Shown: positions 1,559-47,293 of the stretch, in pieces
Position numbering within the stretch: position 1 is the stretch's first letter
Layout of the letters: every line of letters begins with the position of its first letter
DNA from: a virus
IMG/VR virus record: IMGVR_UViG_3300025933_000001
Location: 23,722 to 87,721 of that record
DNA: 64,000 nt
Strand: one strand, 5' to 3'
Notes under the pieces: model-generated
Told to the model about the DNA's origin: nothing
What the model saw: only the letters and a program-made list of their open reading frames with translations
The model's database searches: none
Translations under genes and position numbers: made by a program

Positions 1559-1585
1559 AAGGGCACTTTTGGTGCCCTTTTATTT
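1559..1585 (+). terminator. Second Rho-independent terminator
   Basis: AAGGGCAC (1559-1566) pairs with GTGCCCTT (1572-1579), loop of five bases, then TTTATTTT. It lies directly ahead of the HNH gene and insulates it from upstream transcription. Confidence 0.75.
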
Positions 1586-1617
1586 TGTCTAATAATAACG
1601 TAGGAAGGATGGAAAGA

Positions 1618-2808
1618 ATGCAGGTTGGAGAGAAATATAAAACAAAACATTGGGGTGAGGTGGAAGTGTTGGAAATCTTACCAAAGAGAATGGTAAAGAT
1701 CGTCTTTCTGAATACAGGGCACATAAAGTCTACAAGAAAAGATGCTCTTGAAATGGGGTACGCAACCGACTCAGAAGCAGAAGAGGGAGGGATGCTTCCT
1801 GAAGTTGAGTATAAGAAAGTCTCGTCCGAGGATGCTTACATACCTTCAGGAACTGTCTTTGAAAGTAAAAATTGGGGAAAATTTGAGGTAGTGGAATACC
1901 TTGGCAGCAAAAATATAAAGATAAGATTTTTAGCTACAGGCTGTGAACAAGTAACACAAAGATACACTATCGAAAACGGACTGGTCAAAGACTACATAGC
2001 AGAAGCCAAGATTAAAGAGGAAAAGAGATTACTGGAGGAAGAACAGAAACGGCAGAAAGAAAAGTTGAGGGAAGAAGCTAAACTAGAGAGATTGAGGAAA
2101 GATAAAGAGATACAAGAAAAACGTAGGAAAGAAAAAGAGTTAAAACAAGCTGAACTACACAGACGTAGGCTGGAAAAAGCAGAGGCTAGGAATGCAGAGT
2201 TTGTAGGGTTCACAAACACTGATACTTACGGATTAGAATATACGGTGGTAGGAAGGAAAGGTATTAACAAAGTATGGGCTGTACAATACAAAGAGTCCGG
2301 CAACACTTATGAATGTAAGGAAGGTCTGATACTGAAAGGCCATGTTTTGGATAAAAATCATCCGAAATTTAAAGAATTAGAGAAAGAATATATAAGGCGT
2401 AAGAGCATAGAGTGGTACGAGAAAAATAGAGAATCGGCTATAGATGCTGCTAAAACTTATCAAAAGAACAATTTAGATAGGGCTAGGATTAAGAATCAGA
2501 AGAGAAGGGCTAAGAGAAAGAAAATTGGTGGAAGTCATACTTTAGAGGAAATTGAACAGATGTTGGAGGATCAAAACTGCCAATGTAATTGTTGTGGAGA
2601 AATATTAACTAAAAGCAATAAACATCTAGATCATATTATGCCTGTAGCGTTAGGTGGCAGTAATTCAATAGAGAATCTTCAATGGCTTTGTCAATTTTGT
2701 AACATTAGCAAGTCAGACAAACATCCAGACGAATGGGCTATCTACTCAGCTACTGAAGAATTTAAGCTGAGAAGACAGGCAAGACTTCAAAATTCAATTT
2801 TAAACTAA
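1618..2808 (+). CDS. HNH endonuclease with N-terminal DNA-binding repeats
   Basis: 396 residues. Two similar repeats of about 45 residues (cores HWGEVEVLEIL and NWGKFEVVEYL) match the repeats often found ahead of HNH domains in phage homing nucleases. A long Lys/Glu coiled coil follows (about residues 130-190), then a weaker third repeat. Near the C-terminus is an HNH domain with zinc ligands CQCNCC and CQFC and the catalytic DHIMP. The start at ATG 1618 is chosen because AGGAAGG (1602-1608) is correctly spaced; TTG 1585 lies inside the terminator hairpin. Terminators on its left and a gene-free stretch on its right fit a self-contained mobile insertion. Confidence 0.85.
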   Translation: MQVGEKYKTKHWGEVEVLEILPKRMVKIVFLNTGHIKSTRKDALEMGYATDSEAEEGGMLPEVEYKKVSSEDAYIPSGTVFESKNWGKFEVVEYLGSKNIKIRFLATGCEQVTQRYTIENGLVKDYIAEAKIKEEKRLLEEEQKRQKEKLREEAKLERLRKDKEIQEKRRKEKELKQAELHRRRLEKAEARNAEFVGFTNTDTYGLEYTVVGRKGINKVWAVQYKESGNTYECKEGLILKGHVLDKNHPKFKELEKEYIRRKSIEWYEKNRESAIDAAKTYQKNNLDRARIKNQKRRAKRKKIGGSHTLEEIEQMLEDQNCQCNCCGEILTKSNKHLDHIMPVALGGSNSIENLQWLCQFCNISKSDKHPDEWAIYSATEEFKLRRQARLQNSILN

Positions 2809-3096: not shown

Positions 3097-3102
3097 TATA
3101 GT
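3094..3102 (+). promoter_or_regulatory. Extended -10 promoter for the recombinase
   Basis: TGGTATAGT at 3094-3102 is an extended -10 element (TGnTATAGT). No good -35 is present at the usual distance, as is normal for this promoter class. The recombinase start lies about 30 bases downstream. Confidence 0.55.
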
Positions 3103-3133
3103 GAACTTTCCACTACTGTATGAAGAGGTTGAT

Positions 3134-3838
3134 ATGAAACAAGCTATAGGGTATGTCCGTGTGAGTACTAAGGAACAAGGCGATAGTAAGCTTGGGCTAG
3201 AGGCACAGAGGAAAGCAATAGAGGAGTTTGCGACAACACATGGTTATGAACTACTCACCACACATGAGGAAGTTGCCAGCGGAGGAAGTGGACTAGATGA
3301 ACGTAAGGTTTTGCGTCAGGCACTATCACAAGCAAAGAAACTGAAGTGTTTTATTCTCATCTCTAAGTTGGATCGGTTATCTCGCGAGGTTAGCCTAGTC
3401 AGTAGTCTGATGACTCAGCGAGTGCCCTTTGTATGCTGTGACCTAGGTGACAGTGTTGATCCATTTGTGTTGCACATCTATGCCGCATTTGCTGAGTCAG
3501 AGCGAAAGCGTAACAGTGACCGTACTAAGGCAGCATTAAAGGCCATTAGGCACAACATAGAGGCCAATGGATACCACATCAGCAAAGCAGGCAATAAGAT
3601 CGATAAGCTAGGCAACCACAACAATTTGCACTTAGGTAGTGCTAAGGGTAGAGCTGCTGTAAAGGCTTACGCTGATGAGTTTGCACACAAACATAAGCCC
3701 TCTATAGAGCGTATGCGTAGTCAAGGAATGACATTACAGGCTATTGCTAGAGAGCTTAATGATCAAGGTGTACCAACACAACGTAACGGTACATGGACTG
3801 CTACGAGTGTTAGTAACCTCATTAAGAGGTGGAAGTAA
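3134..3838 (+). CDS. Small serine recombinase (resolvase/invertase family)
   Basis: 234 residues. The N-terminus is a resolvase catalytic domain: IGYVRVSTKEQ carries the nucleophile Ser11, followed by the conserved KLDRLSRE segment (about residues 85-92) and the AESERKR helix that binds the site. The C-terminus (GMTLQAIARELNDQGVPTQ and WTATSVSNLIKRW) is a helix-turn-helix of the recombinase type. At this length it fits resolvases and invertases, not large serine integrases. The ATG at 3134 follows GAGG (3125-3128). It lies between a 14-base direct repeat (2962/4161) and next to a DnaA-box origin-like segment, suggesting multimer resolution, inversion or movement of this module. Confidence 0.85.
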   Translation: MKQAIGYVRVSTKEQGDSKLGLEAQRKAIEEFATTHGYELLTTHEEVASGGSGLDERKVLRQALSQAKKLKCFILISKLDRLSREVSLVSSLMTQRVPFVCCDLGDSVDPFVLHIYAAFAESERKRNSDRTKAALKAIRHNIEANGYHISKAGNKIDKLGNHNNLHLGSAKGRAAVKAYADEFAHKHKPSIERMRSQGMTLQAIARELNDQGVPTQRNGTWTATSVSNLIKRWK

Positions 3839-3915
3839 TAACACTACTAATAGTAAGTAACTATTGTACCTACCGTAGTTAATAGTCTTTAGCTACACAA
3901 CTAAGCCCACACACT

Positions 3916-3951
3916 AAGCTAAGTACTCTAGTTTGTTACTTAGCTTTCTTT
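3916..3951 (+). terminator. Probable terminator of the recombinase gene
   Basis: AAGCTAAGTA (3916-3925) pairs perfectly with TACTTAGCTT (3937-3946), an 11-base loop between them, followed by TCTTTC. The T run is weak, so termination efficiency is uncertain. Confidence 0.45.
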
Positions 3952-4119
3952 CAGCTTGTAAGTAAAAGTCTTTCCATTCTGTTAAGTAATTATTATTTTG
4001 TCATTGTTTGTAGGAAACTAAGGTTTCGTACTCAAATAATAGAACAGTCGTACTATTTTTAAGAAGACTATAGCAGGTTCGCCAAAGTAGCGAAACAAAC
4101 ACACAGCATTACAAATAAT

Positions 4120-4199
4120 GTTAATAACCCTGTGGATAACTTTTAAGTTATTAACAATGTTATCCACAAGCCATAATTGTACTAATAATGGTAATTATG
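4120..4199. promoter_or_regulatory. Putative replication origin: interleaved DnaA-box dyads
   Basis: Two exact consensus DnaA boxes face each other: TGTGGATAA (4131-4139) and TTATCCACA (4160-4168). They interleave with a second inverted pair, GTTAATAAC (4120-4128) and GTTATTAAC (4147-4155); each pair has an offset of 27 bases. An AT-rich stretch and a CATAATT/AATTATG dyad (4172-4199) follow, suitable as an unwinding element. DnaA boxes recruit the host initiator DnaA; that this is the phage origin is inference. Confidence 0.55.
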
Positions 4200-4586
4200 A
4201 TACTACTTAGTAATTATAATCCTCTGTAATTCCCTATAATTCGTACACAAACACATATTCTGTAAAGAAAGATTCTATAGCTTTGCACACACAACAAGGA
4301 TGCTTCTGTAAGTGGGGTATTTTGTACACAACACAAGATATTATTGCGATAGCGTAATAATACATTTACCCCACAACATAGAGATTATGCCGTGAAAACG
4401 GCCATATGCTAGTGCGTCAGCACACAACAACCCTCTATGCGCTGGAAAGCGCCCTATAGCCTGTATTATTTGGTAGGAGGGGGAGATTACGTAAGTAATC
4501 CATTCTCCCCCTATAACATAGCTCTATGGTCGTTATCACGACATGTTCATAAGGCGCTTGCCAGCGCATAATATAGCTACGTAAGA

Positions 4587-4615
4587 TTGCTTTCTACCTA
4601 CGTAAGTAGTATAAT
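4587..4615 (+). promoter_or_regulatory. Strong sigma70-type promoter for the gene at 4672
   Basis: TTGCTT (4587-4592), a 17-base spacer, then a perfect TATAAT (4610-4615). The spacer contains the dyad CTAC-GTAA-GTAG (4598-4609), a possible operator. Transcripts would begin near 4622, so the hairpin at 4625-4640 would form the very 5' end of the message. Confidence 0.7.
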
Positions 4616-4624
4616 AACACTGTT

Positions 4625-4645
4625 AGGGCTTAGAAGCCCTTTTTG
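4625..4645 (+). terminator. Terminator hairpin closing the structured segment
   Basis: AGGGCT (4625-4630) pairs with AGCCCT (4635-4640) with four-base loop TAGA, followed by TTTTTGTGTTT. It can end transcripts arriving from the left. For transcripts initiated at about 4622 it is too close to the start to terminate and would act as a 5' protective hairpin. Confidence 0.65.
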
Positions 4646-4671
4646 TGTTTCTCTTACAATTTATTAACATT

Positions 4672-5217
4672 ATGTCTAAATTCGTACGCACTACTATAAC
4701 CAACCCTGATGGTAGTATTTCTCCAGCTAGAATTAACACAGAAACTGGGGAGATAAAACCCTATAAACACTGGAAACAGAAAGAGAATGAAGAATTCAGA
4801 AAACAGCTAAAACTTAAGCGAAAAGACGGAATAAATGATGCTACAAAACCTTTATTCTGGGAAATTATTCCTCCTCCGGCGATAGCTGGAGGGAATGAGA
4901 AGAAAGAGAATAAGGCTATTAGGAAGAGTAAAGAAAACGTAAATAACATCTATCTTCAAGAGTTCCTTACACTCTCTGAAGCTATCGAAGATGTACCTAT
5001 TTTAGACAACTTGATTACAGGAGTAAGTAAATTGGATTCAGGAAATAAAAACCCGATCAATAAAGGTTTGTTGTTTAGTATGCTAAGAGATTTAGACGTT
5101 ATCAATGTTACTACAGTGCAACAATACACTGGTTATTCTGAGAGATATTGCCGTAAGCTTGTTCAATACTTGTTTGTGCTTTCTACGGCATTTGATAACG
5201 AGATTGAGAAGAATTGA
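4672..5217 (+). CDS. Putative DNA-binding protein beside the origin
   Basis: 181 residues. A basic, Lys-rich N-terminal half (about residues 25-85) is followed by an ordered C-terminal part with a probable helix-turn-helix (TTVQQYTGYSERYCRKLVQY, about residues 145-165). ATG 4672 is preferred over GTG 4645, which sits in the terminator tail. No Shine-Dalgarno sequence precedes either start, which is unusual in this genome. Its position beside DnaA boxes and a strong promoter suggests a replication or partition regulator, but no family is recognised. Confidence 0.6.
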   Translation: MSKFVRTTITNPDGSISPARINTETGEIKPYKHWKQKENEEFRKQLKLKRKDGINDATKPLFWEIIPPPAIAGGNEKKENKAIRKSKENVNNIYLQEFLTLSEAIEDVPILDNLITGVSKLDSGNKNPINKGLLFSMLRDLDVINVTTVQQYTGYSERYCRKLVQYLFVLSTAFDNEIEKN

Positions 5218-5308: not shown

Positions 5309-5317
5309 TGTGGATAA
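5309..5317 (-). promoter_or_regulatory. Isolated DnaA box
   Basis: TGTGGATAA, the exact complement of TTATCCACA. It shares 13 bases (CTGTGGATAACTT) with the box at 4131, so the putative initiator-like gene is flanked on both sides by DnaA boxes. Confidence 0.5.
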
Positions 5318-5359: not shown

Positions 5360-5394
5360 AAGCCTAGACAGACAGTCTGTGTCTGTCTAGGCTT
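5360..5394. terminator. Bidirectional terminator between converging units
   Basis: A perfect 15-bp stem (5360-5374 with 5380-5394) and a 5-base loop. It separates the rightward gene at 4672-5217 from the leftward small-gene cluster that starts at 5401, so it probably stops transcription from both sides. Confidence 0.8.
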
Positions 5395-12626: not shown

Positions 12627-12701
12627 GTTAAAAGCTCCAGTAAGTTAGTAATAGATTGATTCGTTGCTTGCTTGTTAGAGTTGCGCTGAATCGATAACCG
12701 A

Positions 12702-12730
12702 ATAGTACATAGCGTTTTCTATTTATGCAA
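12702..12730 (-). promoter_or_regulatory. Leftward promoter
   Basis: Leftward TTGCAT (12730-12725), 17-base spacer, TACTAT (12707-12702), giving a leader of about 70 bases before the start at 12626. Confidence 0.55.
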
Positions 12731-12753
12731 GGGTTTTTAACTAAATAATTAAC

Positions 12754-12779
12754 CTTTCCATAATTAGTTATATGGAAAG
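12754..12779. repeat. Inverted repeat upstream of the promoter
   Basis: CTTTCCATA (12754-12762) and TATGGAAAG (12771-12779), perfect 9-bp arms, 8-base gap. Located just upstream of the promoter at 12702-12730, a plausible activator or repressor site. Confidence 0.55.
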
Positions 12780-13231
12780 AGTCACTAGCAGTTAAAAATT
12801 TCTCTTGATAAATGCTGAAAACGTTCTAAGATGCTATAAGCCGATAAAAGTTTGCTCGAAGGTTTCTCTTCGCCTTTCGCAAGCATTGACGGTCTATTAC
12901 ATATAGAGGAGTGATTGCATAACTATTCTTTGTTGATTCTTTAGACCTGTTTTATGGCGTGTGATTGCGCCTGTTGTTTGACGTGTGTCAGAGGGATTGT
13001 TTCGCCCTTTCGTTTCATCCTGCTTATTGCTTGGAGGGTTCGCTATGCCTGTTTAATTACTTGTTACTAATGCTTGATTACTGAAAATGGATAGTAGTTA
13101 GCTATCCATAACAATTTGCTATCTGTTTGCGCTGTTAGCGATGGGCTTTCTATTGCCTTTTCGTTAATAGTGCTAAACATTTCGCGCCTATACCACATTT
13201 ACAGGTAGAGGAGGGCAGCTATTGTGTAAAA

Positions 13232-21420: not shown

Positions 21421-22071
21421 ATGTTAGTTAACGGTAAAGATGTTACGGAAAAGAAGTGTACAAAATGTGGTGAAGTTAAAAGTATTGATAATTTTAGTCC
21501 TACTAAGAGGTTTGAAGATGGGAGTATCAAATATGTCAGCAGTTGGTGTAATTGGTGTAAAAACGAGACCCAGTTACATAAAAAGGGAGGAAGAGTAAAA
21601 CCAATCCCTGTGGTTACAGATGAGGGGAAAGAATGTTTAGAGTGTCATGTTATAAAATCTTTTGACAATTTTTCTCCTGCAGCAAGAGGTAGGATGGGTG
21701 TTTCTGCTTATTGTAAACCTTGTATGAGTAGTAAGGCACAACGTAAACCTGAGTACAAGGAGAAGAACAGAGAGAGTATGCGAAGTTACCGCAAACGCCA
21801 TCAAGCACGTTGGAGAGCTAAACATCGACTACATCAATTCAAACGTAGGCAGAAAATTGAAGCGACAGACGACGGAACGGTAGACGATGTTGTTCTTGAT
21901 ATTATTTACCGTCTTGTGTACTGTTACTGGTGTCAGAAAGAGACTATTCCTGAGGAAAGAACATTGGAGCATATTAAAGAGCTATCCGAAGGCGGAGAAC
22001 ACACTTTAGATAACGTTGCCATGGCTTGCAGGTCATGCAATTCAGCAAGGAAAGGAAGAACAAAGAAATGA
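21421..22071 (+). CDS. HNH endonuclease with two zinc ribbons
   Basis: 216 residues. Two Cys4 modules (CTKCGEVK...CNWCK and CLECHVIK...CKPCM) precede a basic linker and a C-terminal HNH domain (YCYWC, LEHIKEL, DNVAM, CRSCN). This is the layout of phage homing nucleases. It ends in an ATGA overlap with thyX, so thyX translation is coupled to the insertion. Confidence 0.85.
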   Translation: MLVNGKDVTEKKCTKCGEVKSIDNFSPTKRFEDGSIKYVSSWCNWCKNETQLHKKGGRVKPIPVVTDEGKECLECHVIKSFDNFSPAARGRMGVSAYCKPCMSSKAQRKPEYKEKNRESMRSYRKRHQARWRAKHRLHQFKRRQKIEATDDGTVDDVVLDIIYRLVYCYWCQKETIPEERTLEHIKELSEGGEHTLDNVAMACRSCNSARKGRTKK

Positions 22072-23036
22072 AAGAAATTATTGGCAAGGCAGGCATCTCA
22101 GCTAAGGTAATTTGTGACAGCATTAGCGAAGCAGGGGTACGGCTGATAACCTATGAGATTACCTATCCACGACTGGTACTGAGTGAGGTCAACACCCATA
22201 GGATGCTATCTAAGAACTCTGCGAGTAGCCGTGCTATTCCGTTTGCTAAGATGAAGGAACAGCTTACGGGGAAGCCTGTACGGTTTGGGCAAGCTAATCC
22301 GGGTATGCAAGATAAAGGGGAAGATTATGATGGCGTTGTAGCACACCCACGAGATAAGACAATTTTAATGACTCCTCAAGAAGCTTGGGAGAAAGCTAAA
22401 GAAGATGCTGTAGGTTGGTCTGAGGCTTATTACAATGCTGGATTTCACAAACAAGTTTTTAATAGATTAAGTGAAACATTCCAGATGATGAAAACTGTAC
22501 TGACAGGCACAGAGCTTGAGAATTACTTCTGGCTTAGAAATCACGATGCTGCTGATCCGTCAATTTCAGAACTCGCTCGTTGCATGTGGGAAGCTAGAGA
22601 AGATAGTAAGCCTAGGTTGTTGAAAGCTGGTGAGTGGCATTTGCCTTATATCACCACTTATCGACATAATGATGAGATTGTCTACTACATTCTTGACGAA
22701 AAGAACCACAAAGTAGAATTATTTTTAGAAGACGCCATCAAAGTAAGTTGTGCTCGATCTGCCGCAGTTTCCTTCAGGAACACAGATTACGGTGTAGAGA
22801 AATCTCGTGAAGTGTTTGAAAGATTAGTAGGGGATGATCGTAAGCATGGTTCTGCCACAGAACACGTAGCAACGCCCTTAGCGTCAGAATTTGATGGAGA
22901 GTTCCCTTATGGGGCAACACATAAAGACAGGAATGGAGACTTCTGGTCCGGGAATTTCATGGGTTGGTTGCAATACAGGCAGACTATAAAAGGACACAAC
23001 TATGCAAGAAAAGTCATCGATGTTGGATCAGCTTAA
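22068..23036 (+). CDS. thyX: Flavin-dependent thymidylate synthase
   Basis: 322 residues. VNTHRMLSKNSASSRAIPF is the ThyX signature region (RHRxxSxNxxSxR variant with Thr for the first Arg). The GSATEHVATPL segment and the late RHN-type residues fit the long phage form. ThyX methylates dUMP to dTMP using methylene-tetrahydrofolate and FADH2. It works with NrdA/NrdB downstream to raise dTTP. ATG 22068 is chosen (AAGGAAG upstream). Its 3' end overlaps a nuclease remnant. Confidence 0.85.
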   Translation: MKEIIGKAGISAKVICDSISEAGVRLITYEITYPRLVLSEVNTHRMLSKNSASSRAIPFAKMKEQLTGKPVRFGQANPGMQDKGEDYDGVVAHPRDKTILMTPQEAWEKAKEDAVGWSEAYYNAGFHKQVFNRLSETFQMMKTVLTGTELENYFWLRNHDAADPSISELARCMWEAREDSKPRLLKAGEWHLPYITTYRHNDEIVYYILDEKNHKVELFLEDAIKVSCARSAAVSFRNTDYGVEKSREVFERLVGDDRKHGSATEHVATPLASEFDGEFPYGATHKDRNGDFWSGNFMGWLQYRQTIKGHNYARKVIDVGSA

Positions 23037-26793: not shown

Positions 26794-27141
26794 ATGACCT
26801 ACAGCCTAAGTAGTGAAATCTCGCAAGATCATCCTAAACAAGAACTCTGGAAGCAACAACGTGAAGAACGAGGATTCGATGACACAGAGCTTTGGAACTT
26901 AGATAGTACAATTGCTCAATTCATTCTCCCTCGATTGAAGAGGTTTAAGGAGATGACAGACAAGTACCCCAACCCTGACTTCAGCAGTATGGAGGAATGG
27001 AATGAAGCTCTTGACAAAATGATTGGTGCGTTTCATTTCATGGTGGAAGAGAAGTATGGCTGTTTTGATGGGCCAATGTTTGAAGATGCTGAAGAGGGGT
27101 TGAGATTGTTTGCTCAGTATTTTGGTAATTTGTGGCTGTGA
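26794..27141 (+). CDS. Conserved phage protein of unknown function
   Basis: 115 residues. LWKQQREERGFDDTELWNLD then TIAQFILPRLKRF is a highly recognisable phage family without a known function, found in many unrelated phages. Fully helical. Confidence 0.75.
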   Translation: MTYSLSSEISQDHPKQELWKQQREERGFDDTELWNLDSTIAQFILPRLKRFKEMTDKYPNPDFSSMEEWNEALDKMIGAFHFMVEEKYGCFDGPMFEDAEEGLRLFAQYFGNLWL

Positions 27142-27154
27142 ATAAGGAGACTAT

Positions 27155-27907
27155 ATGAAGCTAATGAAATTTAAAGTGAAGAACCCAGAGCATTCTGCGG
27201 AGATTCAGAATGCATTGTTTAAGGCTGGATATGATTGGGCATGGCAAGCAAACAAGGGTGAGGTTATGTTTACCGAGTCTCCTTGGTTGTTTGCAGGTAT
27301 AGGTGCAAAATACGATGAAGATGGTAATCCACGACAAAACGCAATAACTAGGGCTGACACAGATGATTGTTATGAATATGAGGATCATGTAGAAATGTTT
27401 GTTGTGGATGGAGAGATTATGAGTAGAGAGCCTAAGTTTAAGGTTGGAGATAGGGTTGTTTGTGTTGACGATGATGATGGTTTTAATAACTACGTAAGAC
27501 TAGATGAAACTTACACTGTTACTAAAGTGGAAGTTGACGACTATGAAACGTATGTTTATCTTGACGGAGTTGGTGATCAGGCATATGACGGATTTGTTGA
27601 ATCTCGATTCGAGCTGGCTAAGAACGATCCAACCATAGGGCGTAGAATCACTGTAGATGAGATGCTAGATAACATTGCTAAGTCTACTCCGGGAGCTACA
27701 CAAACTATTACTACGTTGGTTGATGAGTATATTGAGGAAAACAAAGAACCTATTGGCTTACGTCCTAAGAGTGTTGTAGACAAAGAGCGTATCTTGGAGA
27801 TTTTGCTAGCTATGGGGAGATTTGTAGATGCTGGTAAGGAAGTTCCTTATAAGTGGCGAGATGAGTTGGAAGATTTGTTTATAGAGGAAAATTATGTTAC
27901 CAAATAA
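27155..27907 (+). CDS. Three-part protein with central SH3-like barrel
   Basis: 250 residues. The N-terminal part (residues 1-90, NPEHSAEIQNALFKAGYDWAW) resembles the start of the next protein. The middle (94-155, FKVGDRVVCVDDDDGFNN) is an SH3-like barrel, and the end is helical. The related first modules suggest domain shuffling between these neighbours. Confidence 0.65.
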   Translation: MKLMKFKVKNPEHSAEIQNALFKAGYDWAWQANKGEVMFTESPWLFAGIGAKYDEDGNPRQNAITRADTDDCYEYEDHVEMFVVDGEIMSREPKFKVGDRVVCVDDDDGFNNYVRLDETYTVTKVEVDDYETYVYLDGVGDQAYDGFVESRFELAKNDPTIGRRITVDEMLDNIAKSTPGATQTITTLVDEYIEENKEPIGLRPKSVVDKERILEILLAMGRFVDAGKEVPYKWRDELEDLFIEENYVTK

Positions 27908-46749: not shown

Positions 46750-47031
46750 ATGAACGCAATTAAAATTGGAACTATCGTTGTAAAGCTACTGCCTGTTATC
46801 ACTGACACCATTCGCCGGATCGAGGAACTGGACTCCTCTCCCGGCAAAGGTAGCCAAAAACTTGATCTTGCATTGAATATCATCCGTGGAATTTACGAAA
46901 CAACAGACGCCAATCCAGAAGTTTCGTTCGATGACTTGGTTGCAACTATCAAGAAGGTGATTACAGCACTTGTCACTTTCTATAACAGCATTGGTGTATT
47001 TGTTAAGAACCTGAAACAAGACGCGGCGTAA
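46750..47031 (+). CDS. Hypothetical amphipathic protein
   Basis: 93 residues, helical, with hydrophobic stretches at both ends (IGTIVVKLLPVITD and ITALVTFYNSIGVFV). Might associate with membranes. It is the last rightward gene before the converging late region. Confidence 0.6.
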   Translation: MNAIKIGTIVVKLLPVITDTIRRIEELDSSPGKGSQKLDLALNIIRGIYETTDANPEVSFDDLVATIKKVITALVTFYNSIGVFVKNLKQDAA

Positions 47032-47038
47032 GTGTAAC

Positions 47039-47071
47039 AAAAAAGGGCATGCTCCGCAAGGAGACATGCCC
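47039..47071 (-). terminator. Leftward terminator of the lysis/tail region
   Basis: GGGCATG (47045-47051) and CTCC (47052-47055), GCAA tetraloop, GGAG (47060-47063), one unpaired A, CATGCCC (47065-47071). On the leftward strand a run of six T follows (47044-47039), so it ends late transcription coming from the right. Confidence 0.75.
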
Positions 47072-47100
47072 AATATTGCTCTACCACGAGCATTAAGAAG

Positions 47101-47134
47101 GCTTGTGGGTTGCTGAAAGCAACAATCCACGAGC
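47101..47134. repeat. Second hairpin in the convergent gap
   Basis: GCTTGTGG pairs with CCACGAGC around an inner GTTGC/GCAAC hairpin (about 47108-47123). No T run follows. Function unknown; it lies in the 262-base gap between converging units. Confidence 0.45.
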
Positions 47135-47293
47135 ATAATAAAGACAGTGCTGTGGTGAACACTGAACGCAAGAGAGTGAAACACATCAGAGAGATTTCAG
47201 ATGCACCTCAATTAAACCACACATCTTGCAAACAATGCAACACCCTCGATCCTGCCCATCTCTTCTTTGAGGAGGTCGGCGGGATTTTTGTTC

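What the first reader, a model, noticed from the sequence alone, without database searches (positions are those of the whole stretch)
3839..4671. Dense array of tetraloop hairpins: candidate large structured RNA or origin
Seen directly: at least twelve perfect stems (4-10 bp) in about 630 bases, all closed by exactly four bases (GAAA, GGAA, GTAA twice, GTCA, ATAG, TATC, TGCC, GCTC, CAAA, TAAG, TAGA). Nested long-range pairing exists (4312-4319/4367-4374; 4377-4383/4433-4439 enclosing two hairpins; 4478-4485/4505-4512). The arms at 4431-4460 and 4540-4575 are inverted copies of each other. Linkers repeat CACAACA, and a Rho-independent terminator ends the stretch. Known phage-borne giant RNAs (GOLLD, ROOL) share size, multibranch layout and location in phages; I see no proof of membership. 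A DNA-level role in replication is the alternative.
Basis: partly seen in the sequence, partly recalled or inferred. Interest (0 to 1): 0.85.

Follow-up and report, generated by a model that had tools for sequence, protein, structure and literature searches.

The report
Phage origin beside hairpin-rich RNA candidate
An uncultured phage carries what looks like a DnaA-type replication start site and, directly beside it, a roughly 340-base stretch that probably folds as an RNA, has no relative in the collections searched and an untested function.

Summary
The hairpins are real. In 4014-4645 there are 10 perfect stems of at least 5 bp closed by exactly 4 bases, against 0.9 expected, and almost none with other loop sizes. 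The fold of 4255-4645 is far more stable than shuffles (z about -7, + strand better than - strand). (a) 3839-4245 is origin-like DNA: two perfect inverted DnaA boxes (4131-4139, 4160-4168) beside an exceptionally AT-rich block (4142-4241). Clustered DnaA boxes occur in all 7 large contigs of this phage clade, 6 of them beside exceptionally AT-rich DNA; permuted 9-mers never cluster. (b) About 4260-4645 is the structured unit, ending in an intrinsic terminator, with GNRA loops on the + strand only. It matches no Rfam family (GOLLD, ROOL, OLE, HEARO included) and has one near-identical relative (99%), so covariation is untestable now. A syntenic relative (G010) has a non-homologous hairpin array in the same place. 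Best reading: a DnaA-type phage origin with an adjacent orphan structured transcript. The RNA's role is inferred, and a DNA-level hairpin role is not excluded.

The parts
1585..2808 (+). HNH endonuclease gene, start of the gene order HNH-resolvase-DnaA boxes shared with G010
   Evidence: Pfam HNH_5 2.5e-11; relative next to the resolvase in G010
3101..3838 (+). serine resolvase/invertase gene
   Evidence: Pfam Resolvase 1.8e-23; syntenic relative in G010
3839..4130 (.). fast-changing spacer after the resolvase (about 9% different from the relative that is 99% identical overall); possible res site, untested
4131..4139 (-). perfect DnaA box TGTGGATAA
4160..4168 (+). perfect DnaA box TTATCCACA, inverted to the first
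4142..4241 (.). most AT-rich 100 bp near the boxes (76% AT, top 0.05% of windows in the 87.7-kb record); candidate unwinding element; holds two TATAAT hexamers (4215-4220, 4235-4240) without good -35 boxes
   Evidence: no promoter called there
4260..4645 (+). candidate structured RNA, orphan; compact core 4306-4640; true start not known
   Evidence: z -7.2; + z -6.9 against - z -5.0
4312..4374 (+). three-way junction: 8-bp closing stem with a 6-bp arm and a 10-bp arm (loop AUAG)
4377..4439 (+). 7-bp stem enclosing hairpins 4386-4406 (GAAA loop) and 4412-4423 (GUCA loop)
4439..4452 (+). 5-bp hairpin with GGAA loop; GAAA in the relative (both GNRA)
4436..4457 (+). left arm of a 22-nt inverted repeat; can pair with 4549-4570 instead of forming local hairpins
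4478..4512 (+). long hairpin, 8 bp plus 5 bp, GUAA loop
4517..4542 (+). two adjacent hairpins (loops GCUC, UAUC)
4549..4570 (+). right arm of the 22-nt inverted repeat; holds 5-bp hairpin 4554-4567 (UGCC loop) with the same stem as 4439-4452
4625..4640 (+). intrinsic terminator hairpin followed by a T run
4672..5217 (+). 181-aa protein gene, phrog_3360-like family of unknown function, predicted helical C-terminal half; no clear ribosome-binding site
   Evidence: no PDB fold match
5309..5317 (-). third DnaA box, after the 181-aa gene
5360..5394 (.). 15-bp stem, called as a terminator on the - strand, between converging gene blocks

Best explanation
The interval is composite. 3839-4245 is a replication origin of the phage that borrows the host's DnaA: an inverted pair of DnaA boxes beside an AT-rich unwinding element, next to a serine resolvase that would resolve multimers. 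From about 4260 a rightward transcript starts at or near the AT-rich element, folds into a chain of tetraloop hairpins including a three-way junction, and stops at the terminator 4625-4640 before the 181-aa gene. Most likely this transcript belongs to the origin: its synthesis helps open the AT-rich element, and its hairpins and terminator limit read-through. Shown: boxes, AT-rich block, their recurrence in the clade, the predicted fold and the terminator. Inferred: that it is an origin, that the RNA is made, where it starts, and what it does.
For: DnaA boxes clustered in noncoding DNA in 7 of 7 clade contigs, 13 pairs within 120 bp against none for permuted 9-mers. Six of seven clusters lie within 400 bp of DNA in the top 1-3% of equal segments for AT content. 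Fold z about -7 on the + strand, better than the - strand, and without G.U pairs -116 against -108 kcal/mol. GNRA loops GAAA, GGAA, GUAA on the + strand and none on the - strand; the one change in such a loop in the relative keeps GNRA. Terminator at the end. G010 has the same gene order and a hairpin array after the boxes: 7 stems against 1.5 expected, z -4.0 on the resolvase strand and -2.4 on the other.
Against: No transcript data; no convincing promoter. No sequence relative beyond one 99% contig, so no covariation. In that relative two of seven changes (4600, 4601) break a weak stem, and the minimum-energy fold shifts. The link between structure and DnaA clusters is only modest across the clade: none at L079, G007, G020. 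Isolates KPP10, PseuGes_254 and phiA047 have no clustered boxes. GC skew follows gene strand and gives no independent origin signal.
Confidence: 0.5

Rival explanations
1. DNA-level hairpins: the array works as folded or single-stranded DNA in the origin (priming or primosome-loading signal, or palindromic binding sites) and is not an RNA gene.
For: Hairpin-rich noncoding DNA also adjoins DnaA boxes in G018 and G021, with no consistent strand preference; the - strand of the window array also folds well.
Against: Strand preference, GNRA loops only on the + strand and a terminator at the + strand end point to RNA.
Confidence: 0.22
2. Leader or attenuator of the 181-aa gene: the hairpins and terminator lie in its 5' leader and control its expression by read-through.
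For: Terminator ends 31 nt before the ATG at 4672; no clear ribosome-binding site there; the gene family also follows a DnaA region in G004.
Against: Relatives of the gene in L073, L074 and L161 lack a strongly structured leader; no conserved antiterminator pairing: candidate partners are weakened in the relative.
Confidence: 0.15
3. Trans-acting large phage RNA of the GOLLD/ROOL sort (nanocage or scaffold) that merely happens to lie beside the origin.
For: Multibranched, tetraloop-rich, phage-borne, own terminator.
Against: No Rfam match, about half the length of GOLLD, no tRNAs, not conserved.
Confidence: 0.08
4. Neutral accumulation of palindromes in a fast-changing spacer, with no function.
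For: Absent from all but one relative; the neighbouring spacer changes fast.
Against: Almost exclusive 4-base loops and z -7 are hard to get by drift; 4234-4645 changed 1.7% while 3839-4130 changed about 9%.
Confidence: 0.05

Closest known systems
DnaA-dependent replicon origins (bacterial oriC, plasmid P1 oriR type; from general knowledge)
   Same: Perfect TTATCCACA boxes in an inverted pair beside an AT-rich unwinding block; resolvase gene nearby
   Different: In a phage with its own T7-type primase-helicase and family A polymerase; no iterons or known initiator found; firing untested
Ori-Finder-predicted origin of Pseudomonas phage vB_PseuGesM_254 (PMC11512268)
   Same: Related DNA polymerase (50%); AT-rich region with DnaA boxes proposed
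   Different: That phage has no perfect TTATCCACA box; hairpin array there was not looked for here
GOLLD and ROOL phage RNAs (PMC12286853)
   Same: Phage-borne, multibranched, structured
   Different: No covariance-model match, shorter, no tRNA neighbourhood, no conservation
PAK_P3 sRNA1/sRNA2 (PMC4933390)
   Same: Intergenic RNAs of a phage of the wider KPP10-type group
   Different: About 100 nt, a short stretch conserved among close relatives; no origin link found in the passages read

Membership tests
GOLLD / ROOL / OLE / HEARO (Rfam) | covariance-model match | tested here: not met
   No hit at gathering score in the window; only unrelated weak hits at E up to 10 in 3839-4700
GOLLD / ROOL / OLE / HEARO (Rfam) | phage tRNA neighbourhood (often seen for GOLLD, ROOL) | tested here: not met
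   ARAGORN finds no tRNA in the window
GOLLD / ROOL / OLE / HEARO (Rfam) | homo-oligomeric complex (GOLLD, ROOL, OLE) | not testable with these tools
   needs purified RNA
DnaA-type replication origin | cluster of DnaA boxes in noncoding DNA | tested here: met
   seen in 7 of 7 clade contigs
DnaA-type replication origin | adjacent AT-rich unwinding element | tested here: met
   (6 of 7 contigs, including this one)
DnaA-type replication origin | GC-skew switch independent of gene strand | tested here: inconclusive
   skew changes at 4-6 kb but so does gene direction
DnaA-type replication origin | initiation at the site | not testable with these tools
   needs replication mapping
structured noncoding RNA gene | fold more stable than composition explains | tested here: met
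structured noncoding RNA gene | covariation across homologues | tested here: inconclusive
   only one 99% homologue
structured noncoding RNA gene | transcription as a discrete RNA | not testable with these tools
   terminator present, promoter not identified

The most novel reading that the evidence does not exclude
Phages of this clade carry, at a DnaA-dependent origin next to a serine resolvase, a fast-evolving structured origin RNA whose place and hairpin architecture, but not its sequence, are kept (G000, G010), and which controls firing of the origin.
Probability: 0.15. Interest if true: 0.75.

Novelty: new member of a known kind. Interest (0 to 1): 0.45.

Why it matters
If true, phages with a T7-type replisome use the host initiator DnaA at a defined site, which is testable, and an orphan structured RNA sits on that site. 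It would also show that origin-linked RNAs can keep architecture while losing sequence identity, so that Rfam-style searches miss them.

Tried and rejected
Rfam scans at gathering score and at E up to 10: nothing relevant. DNA similarity in phages and plasmids: no match. Two 18-mers in viral contigs: only the known relative; the three genome-contig hits of one 18-mer match 18-20 bases only and look like chance. Two covariance models against 40 records: only the window's own record. A general link between resolvase and downstream structure in 37 loci: only a slight mean dip. Structure near DnaA clusters across the clade: modest, fractions 0.02-0.73. Fold of the 181-aa protein: low confidence, no PDB match. 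Invertible segment between the inverted copies: same orientation in the relative, no support.

Full report
Setting. The window is bases 23722-87721 of an 87.7-kb IMG/VR virus record. The phage has a family A DNA polymerase (best isolate match 53%, Aeromonas phage phiA047), a Toprim/DnaB-type primase-helicase, ribonucleotide reductase, terminase, Mu-type portal and PhoH. The flagged interval lies between a serine resolvase (3101-3838) and a 181-aa gene of unknown function (4672-5217), phrog_3360-like.

Observation. The hairpins are there and far exceed chance: 10 perfect stems of at least 5 bp with 4-base loops against 0.92 in shuffles, and nearly none with other loop lengths. The fold of 4255-4645 has z -7.2; the site is among the strongest of the whole record on both strands. 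The + strand is preferred in z and in energy without G.U pairs. Three of the loops closing stems of 5 bp or more are GNRA on the + strand; none on the - strand. No open reading frame of 60 aa lies in the stretch.

The interval splits in two. Structure has its low point at 4159-4278. To its left are two perfect inverted DnaA boxes at 4131-4139 and 4160-4168, with the AT peak 4142-4241. To its right is the hairpin unit with its terminator. The one near-identical contig differs by about 9% in 3839-4130, has a 10-bp deletion at 4224-4233, and differs at 7 of 412 positions in 4234-4645: one changes a GNRA loop GGAA to GAAA, two lie in the terminator loop, two in linkers, and two break a weak 4-bp stem. 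The overall difference between the two contigs is about 1%, so the right part is not unusually conserved; it is the left spacer that changes fast.

Relatives. Six large relatives (helicase 60-68% identical) were read in full. Every one has clustered DnaA boxes in noncoding DNA, which no permuted 9-mer shows, and in six of the seven contigs, this one included, exceptionally AT-rich DNA adjoins them. Isolates KPP10, PseuGes_254 and phiA047 lack clusters. G010 keeps the order HNH - resolvase - DnaA boxes - hairpin array; its array (7 stems against 1.5, z -4.0 on the resolvase strand, a GC-rich hairpin at its end) has no detectable sequence similarity to this one. Hairpins also adjoin the boxes in G018 and G021, weakly in G004, and not in L079, G007 or G020. 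The pattern is therefore suggestive, not general, and was found after looking.

Search for homologues of the RNA. DNA similarity, two 18-mers and two covariance models found only the window's own record and the 99% contig. Rfam gives nothing. It is an orphan, and covariation cannot be tested.

Mechanism. I commit to a DnaA-type origin plus an adjacent rightward transcript, confidence 0.5 for the composite. The origin part rests on sequence features that recur in the clade; the RNA part rests on folding, loop type, strand preference and terminator. That the RNA is made, where it starts and that it affects the origin are inferences. The attenuator reading and the DNA-hairpin reading remain open.

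Comparison. GOLLD and ROOL resemble it only in being phage-borne and multibranched (PMC12286853); it fails the membership tests that could be run. PAK_P3 expresses two small intergenic RNAs of about 100 nt (PMC4933390), so phages of this wider group do make intergenic RNAs. An origin with DnaA boxes was predicted for PseuGes_254 by Ori-Finder (PMC11512268).

Noticed in passing
window 4131-4168, 5309-5317; G004 73598-73618 and 84488-84515; G007 73989-74052; G010 46828-46888; G018 27101-27890; G020 92994-93037; G021 21948-22651: Clusters of perfect DnaA boxes in noncoding DNA in every large contig of the clade, most beside exceptionally AT-rich DNA; absent in three related isolates.
   Followed up: yes
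window 46940-47190: Second strong structured stretch (z -7.8, + strand), with GCAA and GAAA hairpins, in the gap between converging gene blocks; no Rfam match and no relative.
   Followed up: partly
L097:5100-5600, L098:5060-5560: GC-rich hairpin array 400-900 nt after a related resolvase (CCCCTTCGGGG, GGCCCCAAAAGGGGCC, GGCGCCTAGGCGCCTTTTT), apparently better conserved than its surroundings.
   Followed up: partly
G021:29984-30981 (L055:9984-10981): 1-kb noncoding stretch packed with short palindromes of the GCCATAGGC/GTGCCATTGGCAC kind beside a DnaA box.
   Followed up: no
window 12627-13221: 595-nt gap with a strong + strand fold (z about -6) and none on the - strand.
   Followed up: no
L042:14000-14160 (G004 74000-74160): Repeats GGTTCCTTGTAAG / AGTCTCTTATATAGGTTGGAAAAATTA just before the relative of the 181-aa gene, iteron-like.
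   Followed up: no
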